Origin: Tridacna crocea
Taxonomy: Eukaryota; Mollusca; Bivalvia; Cardiida; Cardiidae
DNA: 64,000 bases
NCBI GenBank assembly: GCA_943736015.1
Contig: OX031059.1
Location: 55,067,159 to 55,131,158, forward strand
Direction of reading: 5' to 3'
Part shown: one piece after another, positions 30,835-63,065 of the stretch
Layout: each line of letters starts with the position of its first letter
How positions within the stretch are numbered: position 1 is the first letter of the stretch
Made by a program: the position numbers and the translations under genes
Notes under the pieces: generated by a model
The model's input: only the letters and a program-made list of their open reading frames with translations
Told to the model about the DNA's origin: nothing
The model's database searches: none

Positions 30835-31460
30835 ATGGCTACCAAAAAGAAGTTTCCTCAATCTCGGAGAAGTAAAAAGTCCCTTGAACACGGTCTATAT
30901 ACAACGTGTTTTATTCATGGTGAAGTTGGAGCGGTACAGTATAGCAAACTCAACCTTGAAAAGAATCAAGACTATCCAGATAGGGTTAAAAACACAGAAA
31001 GTGCGACTTGTAAGGTATTCGACAAGCAAGATATTGCAGACAATTTTCAAAGATTTGACAGCTTGAATGAGGAAGAGGACGATGTGAGATATGATAGAGG
31101 CCAGCAAACAGACCATGAAGGAAATATACGAAGATATTCAGGACCCGATTTCGAATGTCTTGATGTGTTGGTTGCCCTGGCTTCCATTGCATTTTTTTAC
31201 TTTGATATTGTTACAGACATTCTCCTGGCTAGAGATTACTACAAACAAAACAATATGTTAGCCTTTGGTCTCACAACAAGCTTCATTATTGGTCCATCAT
31301 TAATCACATGTATTTTAAACTTCAGATGGTACTTGTTAGATTATGAAACTCAACAGATTTTAATTAAGAAACGAGGGAAAACAAACGTTAAAGTGACATC
31401 ACTTCCCCTTTGGTGTATTCGATTCATGATGACAGTTTCATTTATGGGCCCTGTTATAAG
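30835..31460 (+). CDS. XKR-like exon 1
   Basis: ATG in AAATATGG context; donor ATAAG before GTAAAT, phase 2. It encodes 208 residues plus two bases of Arg209: the N-terminal tail and the first three hydrophobic segments, including FDIVTDILLARDYY, typical of XKR proteins. Confidence 0.9.
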
Positions 31461-37400: not shown

Positions 37401-40400
37401 ACTGCATGTTTGCTGAAGCCTGGTCTTGATCTACACTGGACACAAAAGCAAATATTGTCGCAAAGATCCTTTTAGTCCTTTATTTTAATTCTCTGCGCAT
37501 TGGGTGTTATTTTAAACAAGTCCGTAGTTTCAGTTTACTTCCTTTATTTTCATTCTTTATTTTATTCATCTATTTATAAGCCAAAATATAACAGCAACGA
37601 AAACAATCTTCTTCATTATTTTTAATTAGCTGACCAACAACAGCTATCCAAAGAACCTTTTTTATTTTCATCTCTTTGTTTTTCTTCTTATTTTAATTAG
37701 CCGATTTACAGCTATCGAAAGAACACTTTTACGTTCTTTTTATTCTGGTTTGCTTTCCAAACTCCTTTTCAAAAAATTCCCTATTCGTCATTCAAACCCT
37801 GTTATTTATATGGCTTTAGTGCTCCGTTGGCTCCGCTGCATGAAAATCATATGAAACATAAGAATCAGTTGACACCCAATTAGCACACCAAAGGAGCAAT
37901 AAACGGAGTAAAACTTTAACTTGGCATAAAACCGGAGTCTTACCGGAGTAGAAAAAATGTACTCTTACAACATGAGTAACTGAAATTAGCCAAACAGGCG
38001 ATTTGACAAGTAATATTTGAAAACATTGTAACAAAACGATAAACAACTCGCAGAATTCGCGACACTCCCACCTGAGGGAAAATCAAATAATGAGTTAATG
38101 AGAAATCAAAATTTAACACATTTTGGAAAGCAATTACTTCAAGTTATGAAATTAAGAATTATCTCAGTAAGACGGCTGTTCCTTATTTTCGTATGCTCTT
38201 GCTTCCACCGCTGGCCGTCTTTAATATCTTACTTCTAAATTTGAAATATTTTTTGCAGGTTGTTGACGAACATCGTTAACACCCTATTCCAGAGTACACT
38301 CAGCAGATTTTAGTGGTCTAAACAGTACTTCTTGGCTCTTCAATGGACCCTTTTTACATTTAGCCTTTGTCAGACATTTAATGAACCGTAAAGTATAGAT
38401 AGGTACTCTGAATAACCTACTAATCAAAGAAAATTTATTTGTGTTCAAGGAAAACTGAGATGTCGGACCAACCACAGACTGTTTATTTACGTTATGATTT
38501 GCGCTAAGCATTTTGACTTCCTCTTTAATTTGATGCTGCTCATTGTTCATGTGTACAGAAGTCCCCATTTTTTCTTCCATAGTCGAGTCCGTTATTCCAA
38601 TACTATCGATAGTCGGAAAGTCTTCGAATTTAGGTTTCATTTGGATCACATTTACAGAACTAATCAATGTTTCATTCTTCGTCAAATTTGATTCGTGGGA
38701 AAGACTGCGGAAGTTTGTTTCATTCACAGCTTTGTTTACCTCACTTGTACGCCCAGTCAGTATCCAGCCGAATTTAGAACTAAGTAGATATAATCCGGGC
38801 TGCAGCTCAAGCCTATGTGGCAATACTAAATCAAGGTAGTAATCATTTCCGATTAGAATTTCAACACTTGAACTTTCAGTTTCTGTCGGAATTGTATCTG
38901 CCATATCTACACTCTTTAACAAATGTTCAAGATGTCCTAGCGACGACATATCGATATGATTTCTGATGATGCCTCCACATATGACAGGAACTATATTAGC
39001 TGTCACATTCATGTATTGGCCATTATTCAATTTTAGAGACAACGTTGTTAAAGCTGTCTTAATTACCTTTGGATTGTCACTACCAAAAGTAGATAATTGT
39101 ATTTCTTGCTCACTTTCCTGTTTTAGTCCTAGCCGATTTGCCAGTGACTCCGTTATATACGTTCGTTGCGAACCACAATCGAGTAGTAGTCGAGTCTTAA
39201 GACAAAAAGCATTTCTCGGATTGTTAATTTCTCCAAATGCAGTCTGCATTAGAACCATATCATTGGATGATACAAAGGAATTTTCTTTAGGAGTCTTTTC
39301 AGATCTCTGATCATTCTTTTCAATGAAACTCATATTTGAAAATTCATGAAGTGTCTTAGTTCCAAACATTTTCGGACAAAGGCTTCGGTGATGTTTGTTT
39401 TCTTTTCCGCAATGAACACACGTTTTGTTTCTCTTGCATTCCTTGGACAAATGTCCTTCACGTAAACATCTGAAACAGCTTCCTTTTAATTGTTTCTTTC
39501 TTTCGATATCAGTCTTATATTTCCAACATTCATCACTGTAGTGTTTCTCTGTGCAGTATCTGCAGTGCTCAGCTGAGAATTTTGTAGAAACAGGTTTATC
39601 CACTTTATTCCGATTTGAGGCCACGAACAAAGCCTCCGTTGAACTTTTCACTTCAGTTAACGGAGCATTCTCTTTCCTTCCGGAGCTACTTTCCACTAGT
39701 GATTTATCGGGAGATGAAGTTTGTGCATTTCCTTTATATTGGAAAGATGTCTGTTCTGGAACAGCAGATTCAATGGCAGTTACGTAATGTTTTAGCTCAT
39801 CCAGTAACCAAGCAACTGTCCATGAAGAACTGATATCTTTTTTTATTTCAAGTTGAACCAATACTTTAGTCGGCAATTTGGATTTTATCATAGATACAAA
39901 TACTGCTTGGTTCACATCTTGTTTTAAAACCTCCAGGCTCCTCAGATGTCTTTGAATTTCACTTAAAAATGAGCGCAAACTCTCGGCTGTTTCTTCCGGT
40001 CTTTGGATATTCATCAGATGCGAATAGTGTAAGTCAATAATATCTTGTTTTCTTCCAAATCTCTCTTCCAAGAGTTTTACCGCCACTCGGTAGTTATCAT
40101 TCGATAGTGCTAGACCAGATATTGTTTTCTTAGCTTCTCCGGTCAATTTACTCATCAGGTATGTCAATTTTTCTACATCAGACAGTTTTTTGTTTCTGTG
40201 GACAGCGCAGTCAAAAGTATCCCAAAATTCTGTCCATTTGATTTTGTCACCATCGAATTGTATCATTTCTAATTTAGGTAGTTTTACAGTGGATTGATCA
40301 TGACGTCCTTTCTCTTGCCTTTCAAAGTACTCTTGTTGTAGCTTCATTTGATCCATGACCGTTTTCTGCATCTCACTTTGCAACTGAACTAGATGATCTA

Positions 40401-43400
40401 CTTTTTCCACAGTACTTTGGTCAAACTTTTCCTCGTGTTTTATTTGTTGGTCAAGGATCGAGTCCTTGAATTCTTCGAGTTCAATACGGCTACTGATAAC
40501 CTGCTCACAAAGAATTCCGTCTTCATTAAGAATTTCGGCAACTAAATCCTCGTCCGAGTCGTCAATAGCACAACACAATTCTTTAGATTTGTCTTCAAGT
40601 TTCTCACGATATACATCCAGTGTCTTTATGCACTTGTTAACTTTCATTTGAATTTCTTCTTTAGCATCGAGTTCAATGTCACTGTCTATTAGTGAAGCAC
40701 ATCGTTGTAGTTCATTCTCTAAAACGTTCCGGTATCTTGTTCTTACACCTCTAATGTATTTCAAGTCCGCCATGATTTGATGAGTATAAAATTCACAAAT
40801 TCACAAGTGATTCTGTTCCCGGGTTCCGGCGCCAAACAATGTCGCAAAGATCCTTTTAGTCCTTTATTTTAATTCTCTGCGCATTGGGTGTTATTTTAAA
40901 CAAGTCCGTAGTTTCAGTTTACTTCCTTTATTTTCATTCTTTATTTTATTCATCTATTTATAAGCCAAAATATAACAGCAACGAAAACAATCTTCTTCAT
41001 TATTTTTAATTAGCTGACCAACAACAGCTATCCAAAGAACCTTTTTTATTTTCATTTCTTTGTTTTTCTTCTTATTTTAATTAGCCGATTTACAGCTATC
41101 GAAAGAACACTTTTACGTTCTTTTTATTCTGGTTTGCTTTCCAAACTCCTTTTCAAAAAATTCCCTATTCGTCATTCAAACCCTGTTATTTATATGGCTT
41201 TAGTGCTCCGTTGGCTCCGCTGCATGAAAATCATATGAAACATAAGAATCAGTTGACACCCAATTAGCACACCAAAGGAGCAATAAACGGAGTAAAACTT
41301 TAACTTGGCATAAAACCGGAGTCTTACCGGAGTAGAAAAAATGTACTCTTACAACATGAGTAACTGAAATTAGCCAAACAGGCGATTTAACAAGTAATAT
41401 TTGAAAACATTGTAACAAAACGATAAACAACTCGCAGAATTCGCGACAAATATAGTCATGAAAAACACTTTACAGGTTTACGTTTACTGCCAAAAAAGCA
41501 TATAAAAACATCATGAAACAACATGATCTACACTATCCAAAACACCAAATGACTAAAACTGACTGAGATTTCACAATTTTAAGACAGTATTGGTCTGTGC
41601 ATACATGTATATAAAGTCTTGGACAATGCAGATCTAGATCTAAGACTGCAAGTTCTGGGCAGTCTGATCATGAACTATTTTGTCTACAAAAGCTCAACTT
41701 TTATTATACTTGACACTGTAGATAATGGACTGAGATCAAATATTTTCCTATTGAAAAGAATTTGCTGCATATGAAGGTATGGCTTCAAACCAGAAAACCT
41801 TTGTATTTTGTTCACCTTCACCTGTGATTTTTGTACAGAATTACCAAATATTTTTATGGACATAGACTAGTCCCCTATTAATCATACTAGTTATAGATGC
41901 CTACTTTATTATACCCCCCACTACAAAGTGGAGTGGGGAATACTGGAATCGCCATGGCTGTCTGTCAGTCCATCCATCTGGCCATCCTTAGACACAGATT
42001 TGTCCGGGGCAATACTCCAAGACTTTTTAAGGTACCAAACGCAAATTTACACACAGTGTTCCTATATACATGTATATATACATGTATATATATATATAAG
42101 TTGTGTATGTGCAATTTCATGACCCTGCTGCAATTTGTTGCAGAATTATCTCCTCTTGAACTTTTTCAACTCTTACTTTTGTACTAAATTATTCTGCATT
42201 CTGTGACAAAGACCTGTTTTTATGACAAGGAGCTGGTGGGGTGGGGTATGGGTCATGTTTAGAGATAGCTCTAGCGTTAATAAAGCTGTTGTTGCAGAGT
42301 ACACACACTTATAGTACTACTCCCTTGTTCTCACCTGAACTGTCCATTGTCTGTTGTAGGTACAGTGGTAGTCTTTAACCCTTTCCCAAACAACAAATTT
42401 TGGACTCTTCCAAATTGAAAGAGTTTGCCGACGACAATTTTAGATTTGGAGAAAATTGCAGAAAGTTCTCAAAAAGGGTAGAAAACACTGTGGGAAAAGG
42501 AGAAATTGCTCGTTACGAGCAATTTCTCCTTTTCCCACAGTGTTTTCAAAGACTGTTACTGCAGACACGTAAAAACCAGGGTTTGTTTGGGAAAGGGTTA
42601 ACTCTTTACCAAACATGAAAATTTCATTTTAACTCTTTACCATACAACAAAATTTTAGACTGGTCCCAATTGAAAGCATCTGCAGGCATTAAAATATAAG
42701 AGATTGAAAATTAGAAATTTGTATTGGGGAAGGTAGAAAACATTGAAGGAAAAGGAGAAAATGCTGGTTACCAGCATTTTCTCCTTTTCCCACAATGTTT
42801 TCAAAAGGCTTCTTTTTTAGGGTCATTAAAAGTCTGGCTTGTGTGGTAAAGGGTTTAGTGTGGCTCAAAAGATGGAATTTGTCACAGATAGGAAAGAGAG
42901 CATTTCGGAAAAAGGAGAAAATGCTGGTAACCAACGTTTTCTCATTTTCCCACAATGTTTTGTAAGGCCTCTTTCTCAAGAGTTGTTTAAACTCAGAACT
43001 GCATGGTAAAGGGTTAAAGTAGGTAAGTCCATGTGAATTGTGTCAACCTTTGTAGTAACTGTTGGTTTTCATAATTACATGTGTTTCAAAAGCAATGAAT
43101 TTCAAAAAAATGTAATCAAAGTGTAGCATTTGTATTTTTATGCTCCCCAAAGGGCGAGCATATAGTCGCCGCTTCGTCTCTGTCCGTCCATCCGTCTGTC
43201 CGTCCATCTGAAGCCATTTCTCCACAACCCCTGGGCCAAATTGCATAAAACTTCATATATGAACTCCTTAGGGTAAGGCGCCGACGTATCTTTCCTGCTT
43301 TTTTCAATTTGACCCTGTGTCATGGAAAAAAGGGGCTTAATGCAAAATTGCAATTTTTACTAATGTCTCATTCACTTTTTGTCAGAATATCATGAAACTT

Positions 43401-45694
43401 CATGATTATATTGTTTATGGAAAATTTCAGCATGTGCCCTTGCTATTTTTAATCTAAGCGGTTTTTAAGCTGACGTTCTGCCATGGAAAAAGGGTTTTTT
43501 TTGCAAAATTCCAATTTTTACTAATGTCTCATTCAGTTTTGGTCAAAATTTCATTACACTTCATGGTTTTTCCAAAGTTTCGACAAGTGGTCTTGTTTCT
43601 TTATCTATGTGTTTTTCAATTTGACCCTCTGTCATAGAGAAAGGGGGTTTCTTGTAAAATGCCAAGGAAAAAGGGGCCTTAATGCAAAGTTGCACTTTTT
43701 ACTAATATCTCTTTAAGTTTTTGTCAAAAATTCATGAAACTTCATGGTTTTATCTTGTTTTACAAGTTTCAAAATGTGCCCTTGTTATTTTCAATCTACA
43801 AATTATTAATGCGCAAATAGCTCTTTCCTGGTTCCTCAGTTTGAGGCTGCATCACGGAAAAAGGGGACTTTATGGAAAAAATTGTTTTTCTCTAGTATCT
43901 CCTACATCGGTGATCAAAACTTTGTGAAATTTCAAATCTGAACTTGTTGGAACGTTGCCCAGGTACCTCTCTTCCGGTTTCTCAATTTTAGGCTGCATCA
44001 CAGAAAAAGGGGGCTTCATGTAAAAAATAGTTTTATGTAATATTTACTACATAACTGCTCAAAATTTTATGAAATATCCAATTTTGAATTATTATTAAAA
44101 AATGCCACAAACCACACACCCATTGTATTTATTTTGCAATATTATCTTATGGGAAAAGGGGGCTTAAAGGGGGCATAGTGGGCTTATTGTCATCTACAAG
44201 TTTGTGTTGGCTATCTCTAAGATAGTAATTGCCTTTTCACTTCAGTTTTTGGGGAGGCATGAACAGGTCCTTTAAGGATAAAAGAAGTGAATTTTTATCA
44301 ATTTCATATATTTTATGACAAGCACTTGTTTGGGGAGCATAACCCGTCTCTGACGGCTCTTGTTAGCTTGGCTGGCAGATATTGAGCTGGTTTTTGTTGT
44401 GTAAGTCATCCACAATGAGTTACAGAATAAGTTTGAGTTTTATTCAGGTCCAGAAATCTTTGACGAAAAATATGGGCCTGGACTTAGAAAATTTTACTGA
44501 AAAAACTCCTTTAACCCTTTGCCCCATAAGGCATTTCTATGGTATCTCTAATTGACCCTAAATAATAGGAAGGATGAAGCCATTTCTTATGTGTATATGA
44601 CACCTTTTGATAGCATTGAAAACATTGTGACAAAAGGTGAAATTGCTCGTCACGAGCAATTTCACCTTTTGCCACAATGTTTTCCAAAGGCTCCTACAAG
44701 TGATGCGTAGAAATGAGTATCTATGGAGTAAAGAGTTAATGAACCAACATTAACAAGAAAAAATGTTTATATATATGGCTTTTATTAAAGCATTGCAAAC
44801 AAAGACAGACAGGATGCTTATAATTCTGAAAGGGGTTTAAATATGGTCTATCGCCCCCACAGAATTTCACAAACTATACATGCCAGCAATGTATACAGAC
44901 AGTAGGGGACTGGATATTGCTATACAATACTATCAGAATGTTTGTTTACCTTGATTCAAACCCCTGCTTGCTTGGCAGGTTAACATTTCACTGTGTTATC
45001 TTGTATCATTTCAGCTGTTATAAGAGGGGCTGCTATCATTTCATCCTGGCTGAGTTTGTCCTGGTCTCTTGTGGCGTACCAGAATGCATTGAGATATTCA
45101 CATGAAGACAAGGAAAATATGAAGATCCCCGGAATGATATTCTACTTCCTCTGGAGAGCCTCTGAAATTGGACCTCGCGTTATTGCTCTAGGGCTGTTTT
45201 GGTCTCAGTTCAAATATCTCGCCTTCATTGTAGTCGGCGCACACTGGATATTTATGTCATCGTGGCTCTTCTGTCAGAAGACTAGGTTCCATCAAAATAG
45301 ATGTGAAGAAAAATTTTTTAACATTATATGTGGGTATGTCCTGATTTTCTGCTTTTTGAATGTAAGAGATGGTAGGACTAGGTATCGTATGCTCATGTTC
45401 TATTCTATTTTATACCTCGAGAACTGGAATATGATGGGATTCTGGTTTTATTTCACAGATGATAAGAGTGAATGGTTTTATCTTCCTGCCTTCTTCGTGG
45501 TGTCTCTCAGCGTTTTTGTACACTTGTTTTTTCAGCTGTTATACTACGGGTGTTTTCATCCTTTAGGTGCAGGAAAAATCCCTTGCTGCCCACCAAGGGG
45601 AGAATACACCTGCTATCAATCATTGTGCCATGATCTGAACGAATCAGATAATGAGTATTACATAGAAAGTGGACCTGTACCAGCACCTGTTTAA
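30835..45694 (+). CDS. XK-related protein (XKR4/6/7-like), complete three-exon gene
   Basis: Members of the XKR family are multi-pass plasma-membrane proteins; XKR4, XKR8 and XKR9 scramble phospholipids in apoptosis after caspase cleavage. Exons 30835-31460, 32888-33096 and 45015-45694 join in frame to give 504 aa. An in-frame TGA at 30808 precedes the ATG. Residues 1-105 are a hydrophilic cytosolic tail. Hydrophobic segments follow at about 108-130, 141-163 and 189-208, and several more lie in exon 3. Family hallmarks are FECFLEAAPQLVLQIYILM (250-268) and NVRDGRTRYRMLMFYSILYL. As I recall, vertebrate XKR4/6/7 also have three exons. No caspase site is obvious in the short C-terminal tail. The stop codon lies in the TTAA of a hairpin MITE. 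Family is secure; which paralogue is not. Confidence 0.9.
31697..32780 (+). mobile_element. AGCTCACCTGAG tandem-unit element, copy 1
   Basis: Starts AGCTCACCTGAGCAGGAAGTG and ends CATGTGAGCGACTTGAGGGC...CGCTTGTT. Inside are about seven diverged units of roughly 145 bp with GTCAAAAACTAGGTCA and CTTGTGTACCCT-like motifs. It lies in XKR intron 1. Confidence 0.8.
32888..33096 (+). CDS. XKR-like exon 2
   Basis: Acceptor AAATTTCAG, donor TTACAG before GTACAT. It encodes QMEYIYNGIKSNSRDL, then MRMEDVDASCIRMFE and the family motif FLEAAPQLVLQIYILM. Confidence 0.92.
33133..33308 (+). repeat. TTAA hairpin MITE, left part, interrupted by a tandem element
   Basis: Starts at TTAACTCTTTACCGCACAATC and breaks at TCTGCAGATA; it continues at 35630-35673. 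Confidence 0.85.
33309..35629 (+). mobile_element. AGCTCACCTGAG tandem-unit element, copy 2 (about 15 units of 145-146 bp)
   Basis: Starts TTTTTAGCTCACCTGAGCAC and ends AACTCAGGTGAGCG...GGCCCTCTTGTT, giving short inverted ends. Units recur every 145 bp, and every 146 bp from about 34180 on. The middle units are almost identical and the outer ones diverge. Each has TCATGAAAGTTGGTCAGGAT, CTCGGACGAGTTCGAAAATG and CAAAAACTAGGTCACCAGGT. Confidence 0.9.
35630..35673 (+). repeat. TTAA hairpin MITE, right part of the interrupted copy
   Basis: CGATTTGGACCAGTCTAGAA to GGTAAAGGGTTAA completes the copy begun at 33133. Confidence 0.85.
35690..35919 (+). repeat. TTAA hairpin MITE, subfamily A
   Basis: With its flank CTATTTCTGTGCTA it duplicates the 33112 copy. 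The stem's right arm reads CTCCTATAGCCAC. Confidence 0.82.
35975..36150 (+). repeat. SINE body, head missing
   Basis: Shares GAGAAAAGTAGTCGGTGGCT, AGAAAGCCAGGAAACACATG and the CAACCAACTTA tail with the SINE at 56121. Confidence 0.75.
36302..36474 (+). repeat. GGCTAAATGCATC interspersed repeat, copy 2
   Basis: Counterpart of 13245-13436; it ends TACTTTTTGCAGATGCA next to a MITE. Confidence 0.6.
36475..36703 (-). repeat. TTAA hairpin MITE, subfamily A
   Basis: TTAA both ends; perfect stem extended by AAACACTG/CAGTGTTT. Confidence 0.9.
37045..37273 (-). repeat. TTAA hairpin MITE, subfamily A
   Basis: TTAA both ends. GGGAAAAGAAG on one arm is matched by CTTCTTTTCCC on the other. Confidence 0.88.
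37451..37455. repeat. Target-site duplication, left copy (AATAT)
   Basis: AATAT directly abuts the left LTR and recurs right after the other LTR at 41449-41453, giving a 5-bp duplication. Confidence 0.85.
37456..38064 (-). repeat. 3' LTR of the BEL/Pao element
   Basis: 609 bp, the same length as the 5' LTR with two substitutions seen by eye. Confidence 0.9.
38065..38073 (-). promoter_or_regulatory. Polypurine tract candidate
   Basis: On the element strand AGGTGGGAG directly precedes the 3' LTR, the place expected for the plus-strand primer. Confidence 0.5.
38284..40773 (-). CDS. BEL/Pao Gag-protease polyprotein with deleted Pol
   Basis: 829 aa, open throughout. Residues about 164-312 are a DUF1759-type Gag domain (LPKLEMIQFDGDKIKWTEFW, LSDVEKLTYLMSKLTGEA). 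Zinc knuckles lie at 404-417, 433-446 (CFRCLREGHLSKEC) and 452-466. A DUF1758-type aspartic protease has its LLDCGSQRTYI active-site motif at 530-540, a LIGNDYY turn at about 640 and FGWILTG after it. Residues about 715-735 resemble the start of the reverse-transcriptase region. The text then jumps to SRLFRVPIYTLRFIKC...KKGPLKSQE, like the linker that normally precedes integrase. This points to an internal deletion that fused two distant parts of Pol. The domain calls rest on remembered family features. Confidence 0.85.
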   Translation of the reverse strand: MADLKYIRGVRTRYRNVLENELQRCASLIDSDIELDAKEEIQMKVNKCIKTLDVYREKLEDKSKELCCAIDDSDEDLVAEILNEDGILCEQVISSRIELEEFKDSILDQQIKHEEKFDQSTVEKVDHLVQLQSEMQKTVMDQMKLQQEYFERQEKGRHDQSTVKLPKLEMIQFDGDKIKWTEFWDTFDCAVHRNKKLSDVEKLTYLMSKLTGEAKKTISGLALSNDNYRVAVKLLEERFGRKQDIIDLHYSHLMNIQRPEETAESLRSFLSEIQRHLRSLEVLKQDVNQAVFVSMIKSKLPTKVLVQLEIKKDISSSWTVAWLLDELKHYVTAIESAVPEQTSFQYKGNAQTSSPDKSLVESSSGRKENAPLTEVKSSTEALFVASNRNKVDKPVSTKFSAEHCRYCTEKHYSDECWKYKTDIERKKQLKGSCFRCLREGHLSKECKRNKTCVHCGKENKHHRSLCPKMFGTKTLHEFSNMSFIEKNDQRSEKTPKENSFVSSNDMVLMQTAFGEINNPRNAFCLKTRLLLDCGSQRTYITESLANRLGLKQESEQEIQLSTFGSDNPKVIKTALTTLSLKLNNGQYMNVTANIVPVICGGIIRNHIDMSSLGHLEHLLKSVDMADTIPTETESSSVEILIGNDYYLDLVLPHRLELQPGLYLLSSKFGWILTGRTSEVNKAVNETNFRSLSHESNLTKNETLISSVNVIQMKPKFEDFPTIDSIGITDSTMEEKMGTSVHMNNEQHQIKEEVKMLSANHNVNKQSVVGPTSQFSLNTNKFSLISRLFRVPIYTLRFIKCLTKAKCKKGPLKSQEVLFRPLKSAECTLE
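40817..40834 (-). promoter_or_regulatory. Primer-binding site candidate
   Basis: Five bases inside the 5' LTR, the element strand reads TGGCGCCGGAACCCGGGA. It starts with TGG, complementary to a tRNA CCA end; TGGCGCC also starts lysine-tRNA primer sites. The exact tRNA was not identified. Confidence 0.55.
40840..41448 (-). repeat. 5' LTR of the BEL/Pao element
   Basis: 609 bp, TGTCGC...GCGACA on the plus strand. It is upstream of the ORF in element orientation and so would hold the promoter. Confidence 0.9.
41449..41453. repeat. Target-site duplication, right copy (AATAT)
   Basis: Matches 37451-37455. Confidence 0.85.
41908..42300 (+). repeat. ATTATACCCCCCACTACAAAGTGG element start
   Basis: The CCCCCCACTACAAAGTGGAGTGGGG foldback start and CTGTCTGTCAGTCCATCCATC are typical of a mollusc interspersed repeat. 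It contains an ATGTATATA-rich stretch at 42065-42100. The right end is uncertain. Confidence 0.5.
42375..42601 (-). repeat. TTAA hairpin MITE, subfamily B
   Basis: TTAA both ends. Perfect stem with tip GCTCGTTACGAGC, extended by AAAACACTG/CAGTGTTTT. Confidence 0.9.
42598..42632. repeat. TTAA MITE remnant between two copies
   Basis: TTAACTCTTTACCAAACATG then TTTTAA: the two extreme ends joined by a deletion of the whole interior, sharing TTAA with both neighbours. Confidence 0.6.
42629..42857 (-). repeat. TTAA hairpin MITE, subfamily A
   Basis: Left TTAA, right GGGTTTAG; stem intact. Confidence 0.82.
42857..43017 (-). repeat. TTAA hairpin MITE, left-truncated
   Basis: Begins at GTGTGGCTCAAAAG; stem with mismatches; right TTAA at 43014. 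Confidence 0.7.
43137..44366 (+). mobile_element. TATGCTCCCCAAA tandem-unit element
   Basis: Inverted ends TATGCTCCCCAAAGGGCGAG and TTTGGGGAGCATAACCCG, then GACGGCTCTTGTT. The interior repeats CATGGAAAAAGGG, TGCAAAATTGCAATTTTTAC and TTCATGAAACTTCATG in diverged units. No coding capacity. Confidence 0.75.
44511..44739. repeat. TTAA hairpin MITE, subfamily C
   Basis: TTAA both ends. Stem GACAAAAGGTGAAATTGCTC pairs with its complement apart from its outermost bases; the flanks (CCCATAAGGCATTTCTATGG) differ from subfamilies A and B. Confidence 0.88.
45015..45694 (+). CDS. XKR-like exon 3 and C-terminus
   Basis: Acceptor TCATTTCAG, 11.9 kb after exon 2. It encodes 225 residues after the split Ala279: RGAAIISSWLSLSWSLVAYQ, MIFYFLWRASEIGPRVIALG, GRTRYRMLMFYSILYLENWN and a last hydrophobic segment near VVSLSVFVHLFFQLLYYGC. 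It ends PVPAPV-stop. The TAA belongs to the boundary TTAA of the MITE at 45691. Confidence 0.92.
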
Positions 45695-52480: not shown

Positions 52481-52570
52481 TTCTTCCACCAGACTTTATG
52501 TTTTTTGCAGAGGAATCTTGATCTACAGTGTTTGCAAAAGCATTCTGAATCAAGCTTAGCAGCCTAAGTA

Positions 52571-52800
52571 TTAACCCATTACCAAATGACAAAATTTTAG
52601 GTTTGTCCAAATCAAAAGCATTAGCAGACGACAAAATAAAAGTGACTGAAAATTTCAAATTTGTTTTGTGAAAGGTAGAAAACATTGTAAGTAAAGGAGG
52701 AAATTCTGGTCACCAGCATTTTCTCCTTTTCCCACAGTGTTTTCAAAAGGCTTCTCTTCTCAGGAGCGTCAAAAGTAGGGATTGTGTGGTAATGGATTAA
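52571..52800 (-). repeat. TTAA hairpin MITE, subfamily A
   Basis: TTAA both ends; left stem arm mutated (AAGTAAAGGAGGAAATTCTGG). Confidence 0.82.
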
Positions 52801-52948: not shown

Positions 52949-53177
52949 TTAACCCATTACCCGACAATCCCTATTTTTGATTACCCTGAGAAAGAAGCCT
53001 TTAGAAAACATTGTGGGAAAAGGAGAAAATGCTGGTAACCAGCATTTTCTCCTTTTCCCACAATGTTTTCTACCCTTCACAAAACAAATTTCAAATTTTC
53101 AGTCACTTTTATTTTGTCATCTGCAAATGCTTTCGATTTGGACCAGACTAAAATATTGTTGCCTGGTAATGGGTTAA
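52949..53177 (+). repeat. TTAA hairpin MITE, subfamily A
   Basis: TTAA both ends; perfect long stem that continues into GTAGAAAACAT-type flanks on one side. Confidence 0.9.
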
Positions 53178-53202
53178 GACCCTATATTGTAGAGTTACGT
53201 TT

Positions 53203-53313
53203 TGGAGAATTAAATCTCCGCATTGGACAGTGTAGATCAAAGATCAGACAGCACAGAATGATCTTTGATCTACACTGTCCACAAAAGGTCAGTGAGTTGT
53301 GCTTTGCAGCCTA
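53203..53313 (+). repeat. GACAGTGTAGATCA foldback repeat, copy 1
   Basis: GGACAGTGTAGATCAAAGATC pairs with GATCTTTGATCTACACTGTCC around a short loop, followed by the family's CAGTGAGTTG...GCAGCCTAG tail. Confidence 0.75.
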
Positions 53314-53481
53314 GAGATCGATTTAAGAAAACGACATAAATGGCATCTTGACCTGGTCTTGATATTACTATATGAAAATATTATAGGTTGTCTAAAATTA
53401 TAATGCGACTATGATCCTTTTGAAGTCTTAACACTAGAACACTGGGTCGTTTTTCAGGCTACATTTTCCTTACTAATGATT

Positions 53482-53708
53482 TATCCCATTACCACACAAT
53501 CCCTACTTTTGATGCCCCCGAGAAAGAAGCCTTTTGAAAACACTGTGGGAAAAGGAGAAAATGCTGGTAACCAGCATTTTCTCCTTTTCCCACAGTGTTT
53601 TCTACCCTTCCAAGAACAAATTTCAATTTTCAGTCACCTTTATTTTGTCGTCTGCAAATGCTTTCAGTTTGGACCAGTCTAAAATTTTCTTGTGTGGTAA
53701 TGATTTAT
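53482..53708 (+). repeat. TTAA hairpin MITE, subfamily A, TTAT-type flanks
   Basis: Perfect stem with CACTGTGGG ends. It is flanked by GATTTAT on both sides instead of TTAA. Confidence 0.82.
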
Positions 53709-54930: not shown

Positions 54931-55074
54931 TCACTTCTTTGTTAGAGTTCATTGATATTTGGTATGAACATTACATGGTTAGACCTGCTTTTATTCATGG
55001 ACATCTCTATGAAAGCTCACTGCTATAAAGATTTCTCATGACTTAGTCTCTGTTGATGTCAATGAAGCGCATTT

Positions 55075-55130
55075 TATATTTCTCCAACAGCTAGTGGATT
55101 GATACAAGGCCATCATGGCCTTCTTGTCTT
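55075..55130. repeat. Repeat end GGCCATCATGGCCTTCTTGTC, copy 2
   Basis: CAGCTAGTGGATTGATACAAG followed by the GGCCATCATGGCC foldback, as at 54290. Confidence 0.5.
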
Positions 55131-55387
55131 ACTTTACCCTCTGATTTTAAAAATTTTCTGGTACAAGAATTTTTAAACATTGGATTGTTGGTAAATGATT
55201 ACAGGATAATATTGTAAACATGATACAGTTTGTCTCAAATTTTGTGCCAGGAGAGCTTTAGATGAATGAAGTGGATAGTTTTAGTCAAAAAAGGCTTCAC
55301 CTTCAAGGCTATGTTTGCCTGCTGACTACTTTCAGCATGGTGTCATATTTTGATTGGTAAAAAACATTACCTTACGATATTCATCAT

Positions 55388-55757
55388 TTTAGCGAGCCAA
55401 GGTTACGATCACTATGTGGATCTTACCTTGGCTGATTGAGCCCAATTTCGAGATTCCTGCAATGCACCCTCTATTGGATGCTGCTTATTACCTCCCCTGT
55501 ACATCAATTTTCTAAAAGCAAATGAAATATCATTTTACAAACTGCTTACAAATATACATGAAGCGATAAGCAGACATCCACGTCCATGTTTTACCTTTTA
55601 TTCGAAAGGTAGAGACCTTGTTCTATTTTTATCAAAGATGAAATGCTAGAGCTGGCTGCATCCAGTGAAAAAGCTTATCGGGTGAACATAAAAACCAAGC
55701 TCGATTCGCCAAGGGTAGAGTAGCGTAGTGAATTGTCGGCCTTGGCTTGCGAAGATG
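55388..55757. mobile_element. Short element with the same ends as the 3.9-kb palindromic element
   Basis: The left end has GCGAGCCAAGG, a spacer and ACCTTGGCTGATTGAGC. The right end, inverted, has CATCTTCGCAAGCCAAGG, a spacer and CCCTTGGCGAATCGAGC. About 370 bp in all, with no coding capacity; probably a non-autonomous relative. Confidence 0.6.
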
Positions 55758-56120
55758 CAGTTGAAATGTCTAAAGCTGCACAGTTTGTGGAGATAAAAAA
55801 TAAGCTGATGCAATGGCCAAATTGTATAAATTTGTAATGTGAACCTAAAGGGGTTATTAAGTTTAGACATGTGTTTTTTTACGAGATGTATTTTTTTTAA
55901 ACGGTGCAATTACACTGTTGTTTATATTTTATAGTATATAATGTTTTACTTTGTATTTTTGTAGTAATTAAACAATTAGATATACAGTTACTTTTCCTAT
56001 TCGGTGGTGTTTGACTTGAATCACTTCTTTTTCTATGCCTTGTTTACCTAAGGCAAGGAGCACTTAGGCCATAGAGAGTTTCCCTCCTTCATCCATACCC
56101 TGTCCTTCTTAGTCAGGCCT

Positions 56121-56378
56121 GCCTGGGTGGCTCAGTGATTAGCGTGTCGGACTCATGACCTGGTGGTTGTGAGTTCAATACCCATTTGAGGTGAACTTTC
56201 TTTTGGGCATATTTTCGCCTGACGCATGTGAGAAAAGTAGTCGGTGGCTTTGGAAAGGAAGTTGGATTAGTACTGATGTGAGAAAGCCAGGAAACACATG
56301 TGCATCACCAATGGCCATGATATGACATTAGCTGTTAAAGTGGTGTAAAACCCCAATTCAACCAATTCAACCAACTTA
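56121..56378 (+). repeat. tRNA-derived SINE, full-looking copy
   Basis: 56121-56193 is a tRNA-like head: GGTGGCTCAGTGATTAGCG (A box), CAT at the anticodon position, GAGTTCAATACCC (B box). The body carries GAGAAAAGTAGTCGGTGGCT and GAAAGCCAGGAAACACATG, and the tail repeats CAATTCAACC. It is unlikely to be a working tRNA because the arms do not close well. Confidence 0.75.
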
Positions 56379-56382
56379 ATAG

Positions 56383-56596
56383 TCAGCTCCTTACTAAGAA
56401 CCAAAATTTTAGTCAGGTCCAAATTGAAAGCACTTGCAGATGGCAAATTCAATGTGGCTAAAATGATTGGACTTGTCTGTGAAAAAGGGAAAGAAACATT
56501 TGGGGAAAAGGAGAGGAGATTTTGCATACAATGTTTTCAAAAGATAAATCCTCTATTGGGTTGGAAATACATGAGATTGTATGCTAGGATGTTTAA
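56383..56596 (-). repeat. TTAA hairpin MITE, decayed
   Basis: ACCAAAATTTTAGTCAGGTCC start; most of the stem is lost; right TTAA shared with the next copy. Confidence 0.6.
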
Positions 56597-56826
56597 CCCA
56601 TTACCACACAATCCCTACTTTTGACAACCTTGAGAAAGAAGCCTTTAGAAAACATTGTTGGAAAAGGAGAAAATGCTGATAAACCAGCATTTTCTCCTTT
56701 TCTCACAATGTTTTCTACCCTTTACAAAACTAGTTTCAAATTTACAGTCACTTTTATTTTGTCGTGTGCAAATGCTTTGGATTTATACAAGCCTAAAATA
56801 TGATCGTATGGTTGGTTATAAGTTAA
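56593..56826 (+). repeat. TTAA hairpin MITE, subfamily A
   Basis: TTAA both ends; good stem, with one extra A at the tip. Confidence 0.85.
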
Positions 56827-56935
56827 TTCTTTACCAAATTTAGGTTTGTCCAAATCGAAAGCATTTGCAGACGACATAATAAAAGTCACTGAAAATTTAA
56901 AATTTGTTTTGTGAAGGATAGAAAATTTTGTGGGG
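56823..56935 (-). repeat. TTAA hairpin MITE, left half only
   Basis: Shares TTAA with the preceding copy and is cut at GTGGGG by the next element. Confidence 0.75.
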
Positions 56936-57158
56936 AAATTTCTTCGATGAATTCAAGATGGCGGACACGTGTTATGAGACATGTGTTTTCTCATAAGTTA
57001 CTATCGCTTGATTTTTCAATCAAAGCTCTTTAGATTGGTACCTTATTCGTTATAGGGGATGCAATTTGAAACAAGTTTGGACCAAAATTAAACGACACTT
57101 ACTTTGTCAATAACACGTGTCCGCCATCTTGAATTCACCGAAGAAATTTCCCGTACAG
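56936..57158. mobile_element. Short element with about 40-bp terminal inverted repeats
   Basis: GAAATTTCTTCGATGAATTC and AAGATGGCGGACACGTGTTA on the left are inverted on the right (TAACACGTGTCCGCCATCTT, GAATTCACCGAAGAAATTTC). Non-coding; it sits where a TTAA MITE breaks off. Confidence 0.8.
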
Positions 57159-57403
57159 AGTTTCCATACAGTGGTAGAGACAGGTGCAATATTTAAGTTA
57201 CTTCACATGAATAACATTAACTATTACTTTATTTTAGCAAAGATCCTATGGCAAAGTTTTCTTCTCCAGGTGTAGGCCTATTTCCTTTTTGCTTGAAAAA
57301 AGGGATAAAGAAATTAAAGTAAGCATTTATCCTGCTTGAATTTTCAATTTGATATTAATGACCCAAATATTGCAGTTTTAAAGTTATGTAATGGGAATTT
57401 ATA

Positions 57404-57520
57404 TCTCCTTATCGGACAGTGTAGATCAAGGATCAGACTGCACGGTCTGTGCAGTCTGATCTCAATCTACACTGTACGACAAAAGTCAGCGAGTCGCGTT
57501 TAACAGCCAAGGGGTTAAAC
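57404..57520 (+). repeat. GACAGTGTAGATCA foldback repeat, copy 2
   Basis: GGACAGTGTAGATCAAGGATC...CTCAATCTACACTGT with a nested CTGCACGGTCTGTGCAG core; tail AGTCGCGTTTAACAGCC, ending GGGGTTAA. Confidence 0.75.
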
Positions 57521-58084
57521 AGGTATAGGCAAGATTTTCAGAAAAAAACAAGCAAGAATGCGTTTACTTCACTGAAGCTTTGATTGATACGATATTTACG
57601 GAAAATGCTCCCTATGCATATTTCAAGGCAAGATGCGAAATATGCTAATTAGCTGTAAGGTAATGTGCATGCTGCAGAGATAAAAGAAAAGAAATATTTG
57701 AATAAAATTAAATCCATTTCTCAGTTCGATTCCGCTTGACAAGACAATATTTGATCCTATGTGTACCCATCTTCGCAAGCCAAGGATACTAACTCCACTT
57801 TGTTCGTTACGTACCTTGGCCGCTCGCCTCTTTAAAAATCGAAACTCCCGCTGCGCCACCTATCGAATAACACAAGTTGCGTAACCTTTGCTGATGTTAT
57901 TTCTGACCAATCAAGATGCTCGTAATAAAATTTGTTGGGCAATGCATCAAATATGGCTGCGCTTTCGGAATCATCAGATCAGAAACAAGACGAACAGACA
58001 TACGATAATCCGCAATCATTTGGCTGTGGAACCCGTCCTAATACTTCACATAATTGATCGTAAACTATATAAAACTTATTATAT

Positions 58085-59636
58085 CACTGTGTTGTAAGCT
58101 GTACGGTACGAAAAGTGTAGTCACTTCCAAGATGGCGGACTGTTTACATGGAGAAAGGTGGATGTCACATTTTATCATCAATAACTTTTTTTCTTGAAAA
58201 CTTCGAGTCATGATACTTATAATATATTGTGGGGGAATGATGTGGTAAGCCTCGGTACTTTATAGCAAAGAGCTAGTGTCATTATTCGATACGTTATATC
58301 GGCGTAAACATTGCCATTCGGTAAAATTTAAATTTGAAGTGAGGAACTTGCATCGTTTTTAGTTATAGAATGGAAAATAAGCCAATGCAGTGGATGAAGG
58401 TTGTTATTTATGTAGGTATTCATCATGCGCTTTCCAATGATTACGGTAATTTTTGTGAAAAATGTCTAGAAAGACCCGAAAACATGTGTTTTGTATATCG
58501 CTAATGCAGCGGTGTAGTCCACATCAACAATTTCACACACACCGGTGTAGACACAATATTTTTTGAACGGTTTAGACACAATTTAAAGCACAATGTATGT
58601 ACGGTTTAGACACAATAGACCATTTGCCAAATACCGTTAGTGACGCGTCACCACGAGTTACTTCCCTTTCTACCGGACAATCTTTCCCAATCTTGTATAT
58701 ACCCGAATAGTGAAAGAGTCATATTTTTTAAATGGATTACACCCTAAATGCGATAAACAAGACAAAACACATAAAACGGCCGTGTCGGTAGTTTTATCAG
58801 TTATCTTTTTCGAAGACACGCACAAAAAAAACTTGTTTTATCAATTTTACGGTAGACTTCAGAGAGTAAAGCGGTATTATAAGCGCTGTCTCCTGCCGGG
58901 CGTGTTGATAGAGCTTTTTGTATGCAGACTGCATTAACCCTTAGGCTGCCTAGCGCGACTCAATGACCTTTTGCAGACAATATAGATTCAGATCACACCA
59001 GGAAGAACGTGGAGTCTGATCCAAGATCTACATTATCCTATAAGGAGATATTTTTTTCTCGAGATATTCCTTTGAAAAAAGTTTTGAGGTTTTACTATCC
59101 GCTTTAGAAGTGGCATATAATTCATTTAGTAAGACAATGTTTAACTAAAAAAAAAAACCTCCATTCCTAAAGAAATTAGTGCAAATATACCGTTAAATGG
59201 GACCTGTTAACCCAGGTTACATAATAATGCATTTGAAAAAGAAGTTCGGGCAGAAAAATGCATCTTTTAGCGACAGTAATTAGAACAGACTTACCCTCCG
59301 TCACAGATTTTAACAATTCCAAACTTTTACAAGTGATCAACGTAAGACTAAATGGGATAAACACTTAATTATGACACTTACGAGTTAGTCGGTGCCTAAA
59401 AAGAACACAACAGCTTTTCATATATGTAGATCATCCACTTTGACGGTGAAATACCGAGGTTAAACGAACACCCAGCTAACTACTAAGCCTTTACTAGCTT
59501 TTCAATGAAAACAAGTATAGCATGTATTCACTTCCTAAAAATGAATCTCTAACATCTTTTCTTCTAGAAGGAATGGAAGGTTTGAAATTTGAATTAAACT
59601 TTGTTATTACGCTAGCTAACTCATATGGTAGTTGAC
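58085..59636 (+). repeat. Giant palindrome, left arm
   Basis: 1552 bp, matching the reverse complement of 59936-61391 nearly base for base over long stretches. It contains about 100 bp near 59365-59460 that the other arm lacks. Confidence 0.85.
58934..59052 (-). repeat. GACAGTGTAGATCA-type foldback repeat, copy 3, inside the left palindrome arm
   Basis: TTAACCCTTAGGCTGCC start and TAGATTCAGATCACACC...GTCTGATCCAAGATCTACA core. Its mirror image is at about 60423-60541. Confidence 0.7.
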
Positions 59637-59738
59637 GACGAGTCTGTACGTTACAAACTCCGCAGAAGACCGTTCCTATTTTTATGTCTGATTATTCAAC
59701 CAATGTCTGCGAAGTTTGTAACGTACAGACTCGTCGTC
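59634..59738. repeat. Inner palindrome in the spacer of the giant palindrome
   Basis: 33-bp arms at 59634-59666 and 59706-59738 (GACGACGAGTCTGTACGTTA... and its complement) pair with one mismatch around a 39-bp loop. It overlaps the inner end of the left arm by 3 bp. Confidence 0.85.
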
Positions 59739-59935
59739 CAGGAATCTGTGGTTTGATTTATTTAAACTATTGATGTGATAATTTTTCCAAAAAATCCTTC
59801 CAGTATCTGCTAAAAGACAGACACAGTCTACTAACAAAAAACTGGGACATCAAACATTTTGAATTTATAGCAAAAACCTTAACTTTGAAATAACATTTTT
59901 AAAAATCTGTATATTTGCATGTTTGCCATGTTCAT

Positions 59936-61391
59936 GTCAACTACCATATAAGTTAGCTAGCGTAATAACAAAGTTTAATTCAAATTTCAAACCTTCCATT
60001 CCTTCTAGAAGAAAAGATGTTAGAGATTCATTTTTAGGAAGTGAATACGTGCTATACTTGTTTTCATTGAAAAGCTAGTAAAGGGTTAGCTGGGTGTTCG
60101 TTTGATCTCGGTATTTATCCCATTTAATCTTACGTTGATCACTTGTAAAAGTTTGGAATTGTTAAAATCTGTGACGGAGGGTAAGTCTGTTCTAATTACT
60201 GTCGCTAAAAGATGCATTTTTCTGCCCGAACTTTTTTTTCAAATGCATTATTATGTAACCTGGGTTAACAGGTCCCACTTTAACGGTATATTTGCACTAA
60301 TTTCTTTAGGAATGGAGGTTTTTTTTTCAGTTAAACATTGTCATACTAAATGAATTATATGCCACTTCTAAAGCGGATAGTAAAACCTCAAAACTTTTTT
60401 TCAAAGGAATATCTCGAGAAAAAAATACCTCCTTATAGGATAATGTAGATCTTGGATCAGACTCCACGTTCTTCCTGGTGTGATCTGAATCTATATTGTC
60501 AGCAAAAGGTCATTGAGTCGCGCTTGGCAGCCTAAGGGTTAATGCAGTCTGCATACAAAAAGCTCTATCAACACGCCCGGCAGGAGACAGCGCTTATAAT
60601 ACCGCTTTACTCTCTGAAGTCTACCGTAAAATTGATAAAACAAGTTTTTTTGTGCGTGTCTTCGAAAAAGATAACTGATAGAACTACCGACACGGCCGTT
60701 TTATGTGTTTTGTCTTATTTATCGCATTTAGGGTGTAATCCATTTAAAAAAATATGGCCCTTCCACTATTCGGGTATATACAAGATTGGGAAAGATTGTC
60801 CGGTAGAAAGGGAAGTAACTCGTGGTGACGCGTCACTAACGGTATTTGGCAAATGGTCTATTGTGTCTAAACCGTACATACATTGTGCTTTAAATTGTGT
60901 CTAAACCGTTCAAAAAATATTGTGTCTACACCGGTGTGTGTGAAATTGTTGATGTGGACTACACCGCTGCATTAGCGATATACAACACACATGTTTTCGG
61001 GTCTTTCTAGACATTTTTCACAAAAATTACCGTAATCATTGGAAAGCGCATGATGAATACCTACATAAACAACAACCTTCATCCACTGCATTGGCTTATT
61101 TTCCATTCTATAACTAAAAACGATGCAAGTTCCTCACTTCAAATTTAAATTTTACCGAATGGCAATGTTTACGCCGATATAACGTATCGAATAATGGCAC
61201 TAGCTCTTTGCTATAAAGTACCGAGGCTTACCACATCATTCCCCCACAATATATTATAAGTATCACGACTCGAAGTTTTCAAGGAAAAAAGTTATTGATG
61301 ATAAAATGTGACATCCACCTTTCTCCATGTAAACAGTCCGCCATCTTGGAAGTGACTACACTTTTCGTACCGTACAGCTTACAACACAGTG
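59936..61391 (-). repeat. Giant palindrome, right arm
   Basis: 1456 bp, inverted copy of the left arm with scattered substitutions and a deletion of about 100 bp (around 60110). Confidence 0.85.
60423..60541 (+). repeat. GACAGTGTAGATCA-type foldback repeat, copy 4, inside the right palindrome arm
   Basis: Mirror image of 58934-59052, ending GCAGCCTAAGGGTTAA. Confidence 0.7.
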
Positions 61392-61633
61392 TATATATAT
61401 CAATCGACTACTATTTTTTGGCAAATTTTCGTCACAGACACGACAACTTTCGTTTTTGATGGGCACCGCCATTATTGTTTTTCTGTTTTGCGAAAGGTTT
61501 CTTGTTATGAATGGTTTGATTGGACGCGATGGGTTTTGATCGCATCCAATGAAATGGCGCAGCGGGAGCTTCGATTTTTAAAGAGGCGAGCGGCCAAGGG
61601 TACTACCTTAGTAACCTTGGCTTGCGAAGATGA

Positions 61634-62262
61634 TGTGTACCTCCTGTAGGTACTGATAAATGCTATATTTGAGTCATTATCTCCCGCTAGATGGCATTCT
61701 ATAAATACTCATCTATCTAATATGGGCATCCTGGGTACAGAACCGAACCACTTTCCCTACGCGACAACAGTTACTTTGAATTTCAAACTAAATAAACGTT
61801 TACTCAATAAAACGCTACCTCGTGCAATTCACTCAGCTATGATCAACAGTTTAGAGAAATCTGGAGCTACAGCAGGTCTAATTTCCTCCTCAAACGTATT
61901 GATAAAAGCTATTTTCTACATTACTACTTTATAGAGCGTAATATTACAGTCTGCCCGCTTTTGGGGTTAGTGATGTGTCATATATAGTCGAGTCTTCGAA
62001 GAATATGAAATGCGCAGACAACGATATTTAAGTTACTTTAACCATAAAACTTCCTTCCTTCCTTCCTTCCTTCCTTCCTTCATTCATTCATTCATTCATT
62101 CAGTTACTTTACAGAGAGGCAACAAGATTCCAAAATCTTCACAAATCTAGCCAAAATCTTTCCTCAAATCTATTCCAAAATTAATGTTCCACTAAATTAA
62201 ATGAGTTTTTAACTCCTGTCTGATTAAAAGTTGTAAAGCAATTTATTTCCCTTTTTTTAGGG
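61634..62262. other. No gene recognised; microsatellite
   Basis: A (CTTC)n(ATTC)n microsatellite at about 62050-62101 is the only structure seen. Confidence 0.55.
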
Positions 62263-62264
62263 TC

Positions 62265-63065
62265 TTCTCTTTTTAGCTCTTTTTAGGGGAGCTTTTAGGA
62301 TCACCCGGTGTCTGTCATGCGTCGTCTGTCTCGCGTTTTCCGTCTTCAACGACTCTTTAAACATCAACTCCTTCTAAACCGCTGGGCTAATTAGGATCAA
62401 ATTTGGCTGGAATATTCCTTGGGAGGTCTCTTTGAGAAGTGTTCACAGATTTTGATCCGTCAAAAACTCTGGTTGCCATGGCAACCAAATGGAATTTTCT
62501 AAGAAATTATTTTAAAATGTTCATCTCTGAAACCGCTGGCCAGATTTTGAAATAATTTCACAGAGATTTTCCTTGGATAATCCTTTTCAAAAAGTGTTCG
62601 CGAAATTGTGATCGGTCAAGAAACATAGCTCTGGAGAATGGGTACTACTTGCACTATACGGACATGAAATAATTCTTGAAAATTCTTCTTCTCTTAAAAG
62701 GCTGGTCAGATTTTGAAATAATTTCACAGAGACGTTTTTGGGTGACCCTTTTCAAAACTTGGTCGTGAGATTTGGATCGGTCAAGAAACATGGCTCTGGT
62801 GAATGGGGGCTACTTCCACTATACGGATGTGAAGAAATTCTTGAGTATTCTTCTTCTCTGAAATTGATGGTCAGATTTTGAAATAATTTCACAGATATAT
62901 TCCTTTGGTTACGCCTTTCAAAAAGAGTTCGCGAAATTTTGATCCGTCGAGAAACATGGCTCTGGTGAATAGGGTATACTTACACTTTACGGACATAAAG
63001 AAATTCTTGAAAATTCTTTTTCTCTGAAACTGCTGGTCAGATTTTGAAATAATTTCACAGAGATG
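62265..63065 (+). repeat. Tandem-unit interspersed repeat (unit about 165 bp)
   Basis: A TTTTTAGCTC...GGGGAGCTTTTAGGATCACC start is followed by four units spaced 164-166 bp, each with CAGATTTTGAAATAATTTCA and CACTATACGGACAT-like motifs. The right end was not defined. Confidence 0.75.

What the first reader, a model, noticed from the sequence alone, without database searches (positions are those of the whole stretch)
57767..61633. A 3.9-kb mobile-looking element that is almost entirely one giant palindrome
Seen: inverted arms of 1552 and 1456 bp around a 299-bp spacer, and within that spacer a second palindrome with 33-bp arms. The whole sits inside shared terminal repeats (CTTCGCAAGCCAAGG...). 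The arms differ by scattered substitutions and a gap of about 100 bp, so they have aged as separate sequences. There is no transposase-like frame. Inference: a foldback-type DNA element, possibly made by hairpin-mediated duplication of a smaller element like the one at 55388-55757.
Basis: partly seen in the sequence, partly recalled or inferred. Interest (0 to 1): 0.8.

Follow-up and report, generated by a model that had tools for sequence, protein, structure and literature searches.

The report
Palindromic transposon nested inside another
The giant palindrome is real, but it is best read as one non-coding, hairpin-shaped jumping element that landed inside an older, smaller jumping element; this is an ordinary kind of genome passenger rather than a new kind.

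Summary
Arms of 1552 and 1456 bp (58085-59636, 59936-61391) surround a 299-bp spacer. They are 98.55% identical, with 21 substitutions in 1453 aligned columns and a 90-bp gap. The single-element reading fits poorly: two elements appear nested. The OUTER one (57768-61632) has terminal inverted repeats of 91/78 bp and a perfect 9-bp target-site duplication, ATGTGTACC; without the insert it is 555 bp and MITE-like. The INNER one is the whole palindrome (58085-61391, 3307 bp). Its arms run exactly to CACTGTG...CACAGTG ends, with TATAT on both sides (a 3- or 5-bp duplication, weak evidence in AT-rich sequence). The arms show no detectable similarity to the outer element or to its smaller relative at 55385-55757, so it was probably not made from such an element. 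The ends suggest a non-autonomous EnSpm/Chapaev/Transib-type (CMCT) cut-and-paste transposon whose terminal repeats spread over nearly its whole length, as in Galileo and Tetris. No transposase remnant was found. The class rests on end sequence and duplication alone, because no host genome is held and no second copy was found. Verdict: real, a new member of a known kind, modest interest.

The parts
57759..57767 (+). Outer target-site duplication, left copy ATGTGTACC
   Evidence: 9 of 9 identical to 61633-61641; a 9-mer matches by chance in about 5e-5 of random position pairs of the window
57768..57858 (+). Outer element, left terminal inverted repeat (CATCTTCGCAAGCCAAGG...), with a 7-bp stem GCCAAGG/CCTTGGC around a 28-nt loop
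   Evidence: 81% to 61555-61632 over 91 columns; stem
57859..58084 (+). Outer element, left interior, not palindromic; ends in TATAT, the left copy of the inner target duplication (58080-58084)
58085..59636 (+). Inner element, left arm, beginning CACTGTG; holds three copies of a TAGACACAAT-containing motif at 58544-58616 and an older repeat at 58934-59051
59359..59448 (+). 90-bp stretch of the left arm absent from the right arm; AAA at both edges fits a microhomology deletion in the right arm, so the placement is ambiguous by up to 3 bp
   Evidence: alignment and indel context
59637..59935 (.). Spacer between the arms, 299 bp
59634..59738 (.). Small inverted repeat, 33-bp arms, 39-bp loop, at the left edge of the spacer
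59936..61391 (-). Inner element, right arm, ending CACAGTG
61392..61554 (+). Outer element, right interior, not palindromic; begins with TATAT, the right copy of the inner target duplication (61392-61396)
61555..61632 (-). Outer element, right terminal inverted repeat; same 7-bp stem, 15-nt loop
61633..61641 (+). Outer target-site duplication, right copy ATGTGTACC
55385..55757 (+). Diverged relative of the outer element only (same ends, same stem); no recognisable target duplication when its left end is taken as 55382
   Evidence: 62-63% over 101-103 columns at each end; last 18 bp identical to the outer end

Best explanation
Two non-autonomous DNA transposons, one inside the other. An older 555-bp MITE-like element with terminal inverted repeats of 91/78 bp inserted first and made a 9-bp target duplication. 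A second element, 3307 bp and palindromic nearly from end to end, then inserted into an AT-rich spot near its middle. The inner element ends in CAC...GTG and is flanked by TATAT, so it most likely moves by cut-and-paste using a transposase supplied elsewhere, of the EnSpm/Chapaev/Transib (CMCT) kind. Its arms probably arose when a shorter terminal repeat grew inward by copying one end onto the other, for example by faulty repair of a donor gap with template switching, probably before this insertion, and after an older repeat had entered the ancestral end, because both arms carry that repeat. SHOWN: palindrome, its ends, flanking repeats, two distinct sets of ends, no coding remnant found. INFERRED: nesting as an event, transposase class, gap-repair origin, order of events.
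For: Arms end abruptly at CACTGTG/CACAGTG, with TATAT on both flanks. The outer ends differ and carry a perfect 9-bp duplication (chance about 5e-5). The two outer interiors match each other only over 16-17 bp at E 0.30-0.79 beyond the terminal repeats, and left arm plus spacer match them at best over 16 bp at E=0.71, in the spacer. Both arms carry the repeat seen at 57401-57518 and 53214-53313. No Pfam transposase. CMCT elements mostly have CA..TG ends and 2-5-bp duplications, EnSpm CAC..GTG with 3 bp (PMC12730594, passages); two CACTA-type MITEs have CAC/GTG ends with 2 bp (PMC6004678, passages). Extended-repeat copies are described for Galileo, including one with 1575/1608-bp repeats at 97.5% (PMC4168063, section 6), with recruitment of internal sequence into the repeats (PMC3573991, passages).
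Against: The TATAT duplication lies in AT-rich sequence: an exact 5-mer matches in 0.15% and any 3-9-bp repeat in 2.8% of random pairs from the outer interior, and surely more often in an AT run. CAC starts are not exclusive to CMCT: a piggyBac element begins CACTAGA, and one CACTA element begins CCC (PMC4298943, passages). No second copy of the inner element was found: apart from its own two ends, only three sites in the window resemble its first 17 bp, each with 4 mismatches, and its first 22 bp are absent from viral contigs and genome contigs. No empty copy of the outer element was available; its relative at 55385-55757 is similar only near its ends.
Confidence: 0.8

Rival explanations
1. 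One foldback element bounded by the CATCTTCGCAAGCC repeats. The arms are its extended inner repeats and the two unlike stretches are later replacements.
For: All lies within one pair of terminal repeats and one 9-bp duplication.
Against: The palindrome is separated from the terminal repeats by 226 and 163 bp of unlike sequence and stops at its own CAC/GTG ends beside a TATAT repeat. The smaller relative has no detectable arm sequence.
Confidence: 0.12
2. Nested as above, but the palindrome formed in place: an ordinary CAC...GTG element inserted, and later conversion or template switching copied one half onto the other. (A variant within the nested reading; its odds overlap with the 0.8 given for nesting.)
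For: Would give the same arms, also reaching the element ends. Substitutions are fewer in the outer 628 columns (5) than in the inner 825 (16), a boundary chosen after seeing the data.
Against: That gradient is not significant (Fisher P=0.079; uniformity P=0.36; longest identical run P=0.56), so there is no sign of recent conversion tracts.
Confidence: 0.2
3. Assembly or library artefact (false fold-back read).
For: Long palindromes are a known artefact type (recalled); no reads could be examined.
Against: 21 substitutions plus 90- and 7-bp gaps between the arms, and arms that stop exactly at transposon-like ends with flanking repeats. A false fold-back would be expected to be near-identical and not to respect those ends.
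Confidence: 0.03
4. Two copies of a 1.5-kb element inserted head to head.
For: Head-to-head copies would give a palindrome.
Against: The inner arm ends (...GGTAGTTGAC) carry no CACAGTG-like end (sequence; the 17-bp end with up to 4 mismatches was not found there), so each arm does not look like a complete element.
Confidence: 0.03

Closest known systems
Galileo (P superfamily, Drosophila), long-repeat copies
   Same: Copies with kb-scale inverted repeats and fragments of other elements inside them (copy 147: 1575/1608 bp, 97.5%; copy 112: 4246/4680 bp without transposase segment; PMC4168063 section 6); internal sequence recruited into the repeats (PMC3573991 passages).
   Different: Copy 147 carries transposase segments in its repeats and an 872-bp gap of N; none found here. 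7-bp flanking sequences are mentioned for Galileo; here TATAT with CAC...GTG ends.
Tetris (foldback-like, Drosophila virilis)
   Same: Repeats up to 1735 bp, no conserved coding frame, a small relative (DAIBAM) sharing its ends (PMC4079207 passages).
   Different: Internal ~220-bp tandem repeats and 8-10-bp duplications. TRF found no tandem array in the inner element at score 50 or more.
CMCT transposons (EnSpm/CACTA, Mirage, Chapaev, Transib)
   Same: CA..TG, in EnSpm CAC..GTG, ends and 2-5-bp duplications (PMC12730594 passages).
   Different: Defined by the transposase, of which no remnant was found here.
Tc4 (C. elegans fold-back element)
   Same: Fold-back structure (title of the 1991 paper seen in reference lists; its detailed anatomy is recalled).
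   Different: Tc4 duplicates TNA at CTNAG (PMC11071193 passages); here TAT or TATAT.

Membership tests
CMCT (EnSpm/Chapaev/Transib-type) non-autonomous element | CA..TG, often CAC..GTG, termini | tested here: met
   CACTGTG...CACAGTG at 58085 and 61391; not exclusive to CMCT
CMCT (EnSpm/Chapaev/Transib-type) non-autonomous element | 2-5-bp target-site duplication | tested here: inconclusive
   TAT (3) or TATAT (5) on both sides, in AT-rich sequence
CMCT (EnSpm/Chapaev/Transib-type) non-autonomous element | DDE transposase with C(2)C and H(3-4)H motifs, or mobilisation by one | tested here: inconclusive
   No remnant found in the element; a non-autonomous copy need not have one, and the genome is not held
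Protostome RAG-like transposon | End consensus CACTWMCAAACKTYKBB (PMC7204232) | tested here: not met
   11 of 17 positions mismatch, positions 5 to 15
Tc4 | TNA duplication at CTNAG | tested here: not met
   Flanks are TATAT
Foldback-like (structural class) | Long inverted repeats making up most of a non-coding element with target duplication | tested here: met
   3008 of 3307 bp are arms; no coding remnant found; the duplication is short and weak by itself
Foldback-like (structural class) | Tandem sub-repeats within the repeats (Tetris; classical FB, recalled) | tested here: not met
   No TRF array in 57.7-61.7 kb; only three 15-19-bp motif copies
Mutator-like (MULE) MITE, for the outer element | About 9-bp target duplication with long terminal repeats (recalled) | tested here: met
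   Perfect 9 bp, 91/78-bp repeats; not exclusive to MULEs, so not enough for membership
Mutator-like (MULE) MITE, for the outer element | Ends shared with a MULE transposase-coding element | not testable with these tools
   No host genome or repeat library held

The most novel reading that the evidence does not exclude
The inner element is a Transib-lineage element (5-bp duplication, heptamer-like CACTGTG end) that has become a full-length palindrome, a foldback form outside the P-superfamily and Tetris examples seen in the papers opened here. If transcribed inward from the promoter-like motif near each end, it would make a ~1.4-kb double-stranded RNA able to silence its own family.
Probability: 0.12. 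Interest if true: 0.5.

Novelty: new member of a known kind. Interest (0 to 1): 0.3.

Why it matters
It splits one annotation into two nested elements and gives a nearly full-length palindrome with about 1.5% arm divergence and CAC...GTG ends. In the papers seen here, growth of terminal repeats is described for Galileo, a P-superfamily element, whose authors suggest that long repeats are a convergent trait of different superfamilies (PMC3573991 passages). A case with CMCT-type ends would support that. For repeat libraries it warns that the ends of nested elements can be mistaken for one foldback.

Tried and rejected
Relatives: the first 22 bp of the inner element found nothing in viral contigs or genome contigs. 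A 25-bp arm pattern and a 24-bp spacer-hairpin pattern found nothing in viral contigs. These were exact-match scans of viral and prokaryotic collections, so the absence says little. The outer 18-bp end hit one viral contig (L001); among its three GCCAAGG/CCTTGGC sites only that one lies in an outer-type end, and I took it as chance. The full inner element had no match in phage records.

Hairpin-primed origin from the spacer's 33-bp repeat: rejected, since its centre is 59686 and the palindrome's is 59786 (arithmetic). Origin from the 55385-55757 element: rejected. Recent gene conversion: no significant clustering of differences. Strand-biased mutation: 12 of 17 transitions have A/T in the left arm, P=0.14; 2 of 21 differences touch CpG. 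RNA family in 55000-62500: 7 matches up to E 0.5, none at its gathering score, all within 56121-56879 and so outside the elements. tRNA: none by ARAGORN in the window. RAG-like membership: end consensus not met.

Papers: 10 searches counted. CACTGTG with Transib gave 0 papers; with terminal inverted, transposon and TSD it gave one rice mPing paper, not opened. Foldback with terminal inverted repeat and bivalve gave 5, one opened. Searches gave 0. Nine papers were opened, all by passages, plus one whole section of PMC4168063. No claim that such an element is absent from print is made.

Full report
SOURCE. No whole genome is held for the window. Frames with XK-related domains (30811-31464, 44984-45694) and a DUF1759/DUF1758 retroelement-like frame (38284-40800) are present. 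Intergenic repeats look like those of bivalve molluscs, which is an impression from memory, not a test.

OBSERVATION. The palindrome is real: arms 58085-59636 and 59936-61391, spacer 299 bp. The arms match at 1432 of 1453 ungapped columns (98.55%), with 17 transitions, 4 transversions, five 1-bp indels, one 90-bp and one 7-bp indel. K2P distance is 0.0146. In 100 dinucleotide shuffles the best inverted self-match was 44.6 bits, against 2195 bits for the longest real piece. In a scan of the whole window for inverted repeats up to 6 kb apart, 25 of 287 pairs were shown; four are pieces of this palindrome (98-99%) and the other 21 are 74-94% alike. The spacer hairpin (33-bp arms) is real.

TWO SETS OF ENDS. 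The outer pair, CATCTTCGCAAGCCAAGG... at 57768 and its complement ending at 61632, is flanked by a perfect 9-bp repeat, ATGTGTACC. A 9-mer matches by chance in about 5e-5 of random position pairs. Inward of the outer repeats come 226 bp (left) and 163 bp (right) that match each other only over 16-17 bp at E 0.30-0.79 and do not match the left arm at E up to 1; one 16-bp match at E=0.71 lies in the spacer. Then the palindrome begins exactly at CACTGTG (58085) and ends exactly at CACAGTG (61391), with TATAT immediately outside on both sides. TATAT allows a duplication of 3 or 5 bp. Because the site is AT-rich this is weak by itself: an exact 5-bp match occurs in 0.15% and any 3-9-bp match in 2.8% of random pairs from the outer interior. 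Taking the inner element and one TAT away leaves a 555-bp MITE-like element. The straightforward reading is nesting.

THE OUTER FAMILY. The element at 55385-55757 is a diverged relative of the outer element only: 62-63% over 101-103 columns at each end, with its last 18 bp identical to the outer end. It shows no clear target duplication with its left end taken as 55382. All four ends of the two elements carry an exact GCCAAGG...CCTTGGC stem, but the loops differ in length (28, 15, 23, 25 nt) and sequence. Single-strand DNA folding shows the stem in 4 of 4, with z-scores -2.5, -3.3, -4.2 and -1.2; for the last, 23 of 200 shuffles fold at least as well. A 9-bp duplication is typical of Mutator-like elements (recalled) but not exclusive to them. 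I leave the outer element unassigned.

WHAT THE ARMS ARE. The left arm has no match to the outer element or its relative at E up to 1; the only matches of the arm-plus-spacer query, 14 and 16 bp at E=0.71, lie in the spacer. Each arm carries a repeat (58934-59051 in the left arm) also found at 57401-57518 (75%) and 53214-53313 (69%), with a weaker match at 52515-52574. The duplication that made the arms therefore came after that repeat had entered the ancestral sequence, or conversion has since spread it. Coding remnants: 0 of 15 stop-to-stop pieces of 45 aa or more from left arm plus spacer, and not the 122-aa frame at 60536-60904, reach a Pfam cut-off. One piece has a sub-threshold match (SF3a60_bindingd, E=0.034) that I take as chance. 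Differences between arms are not significantly clustered. The 90-bp gap has AAA at both edges and fits a microhomology deletion in the right arm.

MECHANISM. Ends of the CA..TG type with a 2-5-bp duplication are described for most of the EnSpm-Mirage-Chapaev-Transib group, CAC..GTG with 3 bp for EnSpm (PMC12730594, passages), and CAC/GTG with 2 bp for two CACTA-type MITEs (PMC6004678, passages). Against exclusivity, a piggyBac element begins CACTAGA and one CACTA element begins CCC (PMC4298943, passages). Protostome RAG-like elements, which make 5-bp duplications, have a different end consensus (PMC7204232, passages), with 11 of 17 positions mismatching, so that branch is not supported. Growth of terminal repeats by recruiting internal sequence is described for Galileo (PMC3573991 passages; PMC4168063 section 6, with a 1575/1608-bp, 97.5% copy similar in scale and divergence, though that copy carries transposase segments and a gap of N). 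For P elements the authors name abortion, slippage and template switching during repair as sources of defective copies (PMC4168063 passages). I infer the same route here. The spacer hairpin probably did not prime it: its centre lies 100 bp from the palindrome's centre.

CONFIDENCE. The 0.8 is for nesting of two elements. The transposase class, the route by which the arms arose and whether they arose before this insertion are less certain; formation in place (rival 2) is a variant within the nested reading.

LIMITS. No relative of the inner element was found, but no mollusc genome or eukaryotic repeat library could be searched. Family copy number, the autonomous partner and the read support remain untested.

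Noticed in passing
57768-57820, 61593-61632, 55385-55432, 55708-55757: All four ends of the outer element and its relative keep an exact 7-bp stem GCCAAGG/CCTTGGC, while loop length and sequence vary (28, 15, 23, 25 nt). It may be a paired transposase-binding site or a hairpin used in movement.
   Followed up: partly
56954-56966, 57119-57131, 58128-58140, 61336-61348: The 13-mer CAAGATGGCGGAC occurs exactly four times in the window, as inverted pairs in two separate inverted-repeat structures (with up to 2 mismatches 5 found, 0.56 expected). It resembles the YY1 promoter motif (recalled) and points inward from each end of the inner element.
   Followed up: partly
58544-58616 and the matching right-arm stretch 60859-60933: Three copies of a TAGACACAAT-containing motif, 25 and 34 bp apart, about 460-530 bp from the inner element's ends.
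   Followed up: no
53214-53313, 57401-57518, 58934-59051: A dispersed, partly palindromic repeat family (GTAGATCNNGGATCAGACT core), also present in both arms.
   Followed up: partly
52965-53182, 53470-53700, 56580-56940: A dispersed hairpin-like repeat containing GCATTTTCTCCTTTTCYCACARTGTTTTCTA, seen at three places by eye (sequence).
   Followed up: no
33396-35510: Tandem array of about 14.6 copies of a 145-bp unit.
   Followed up: no
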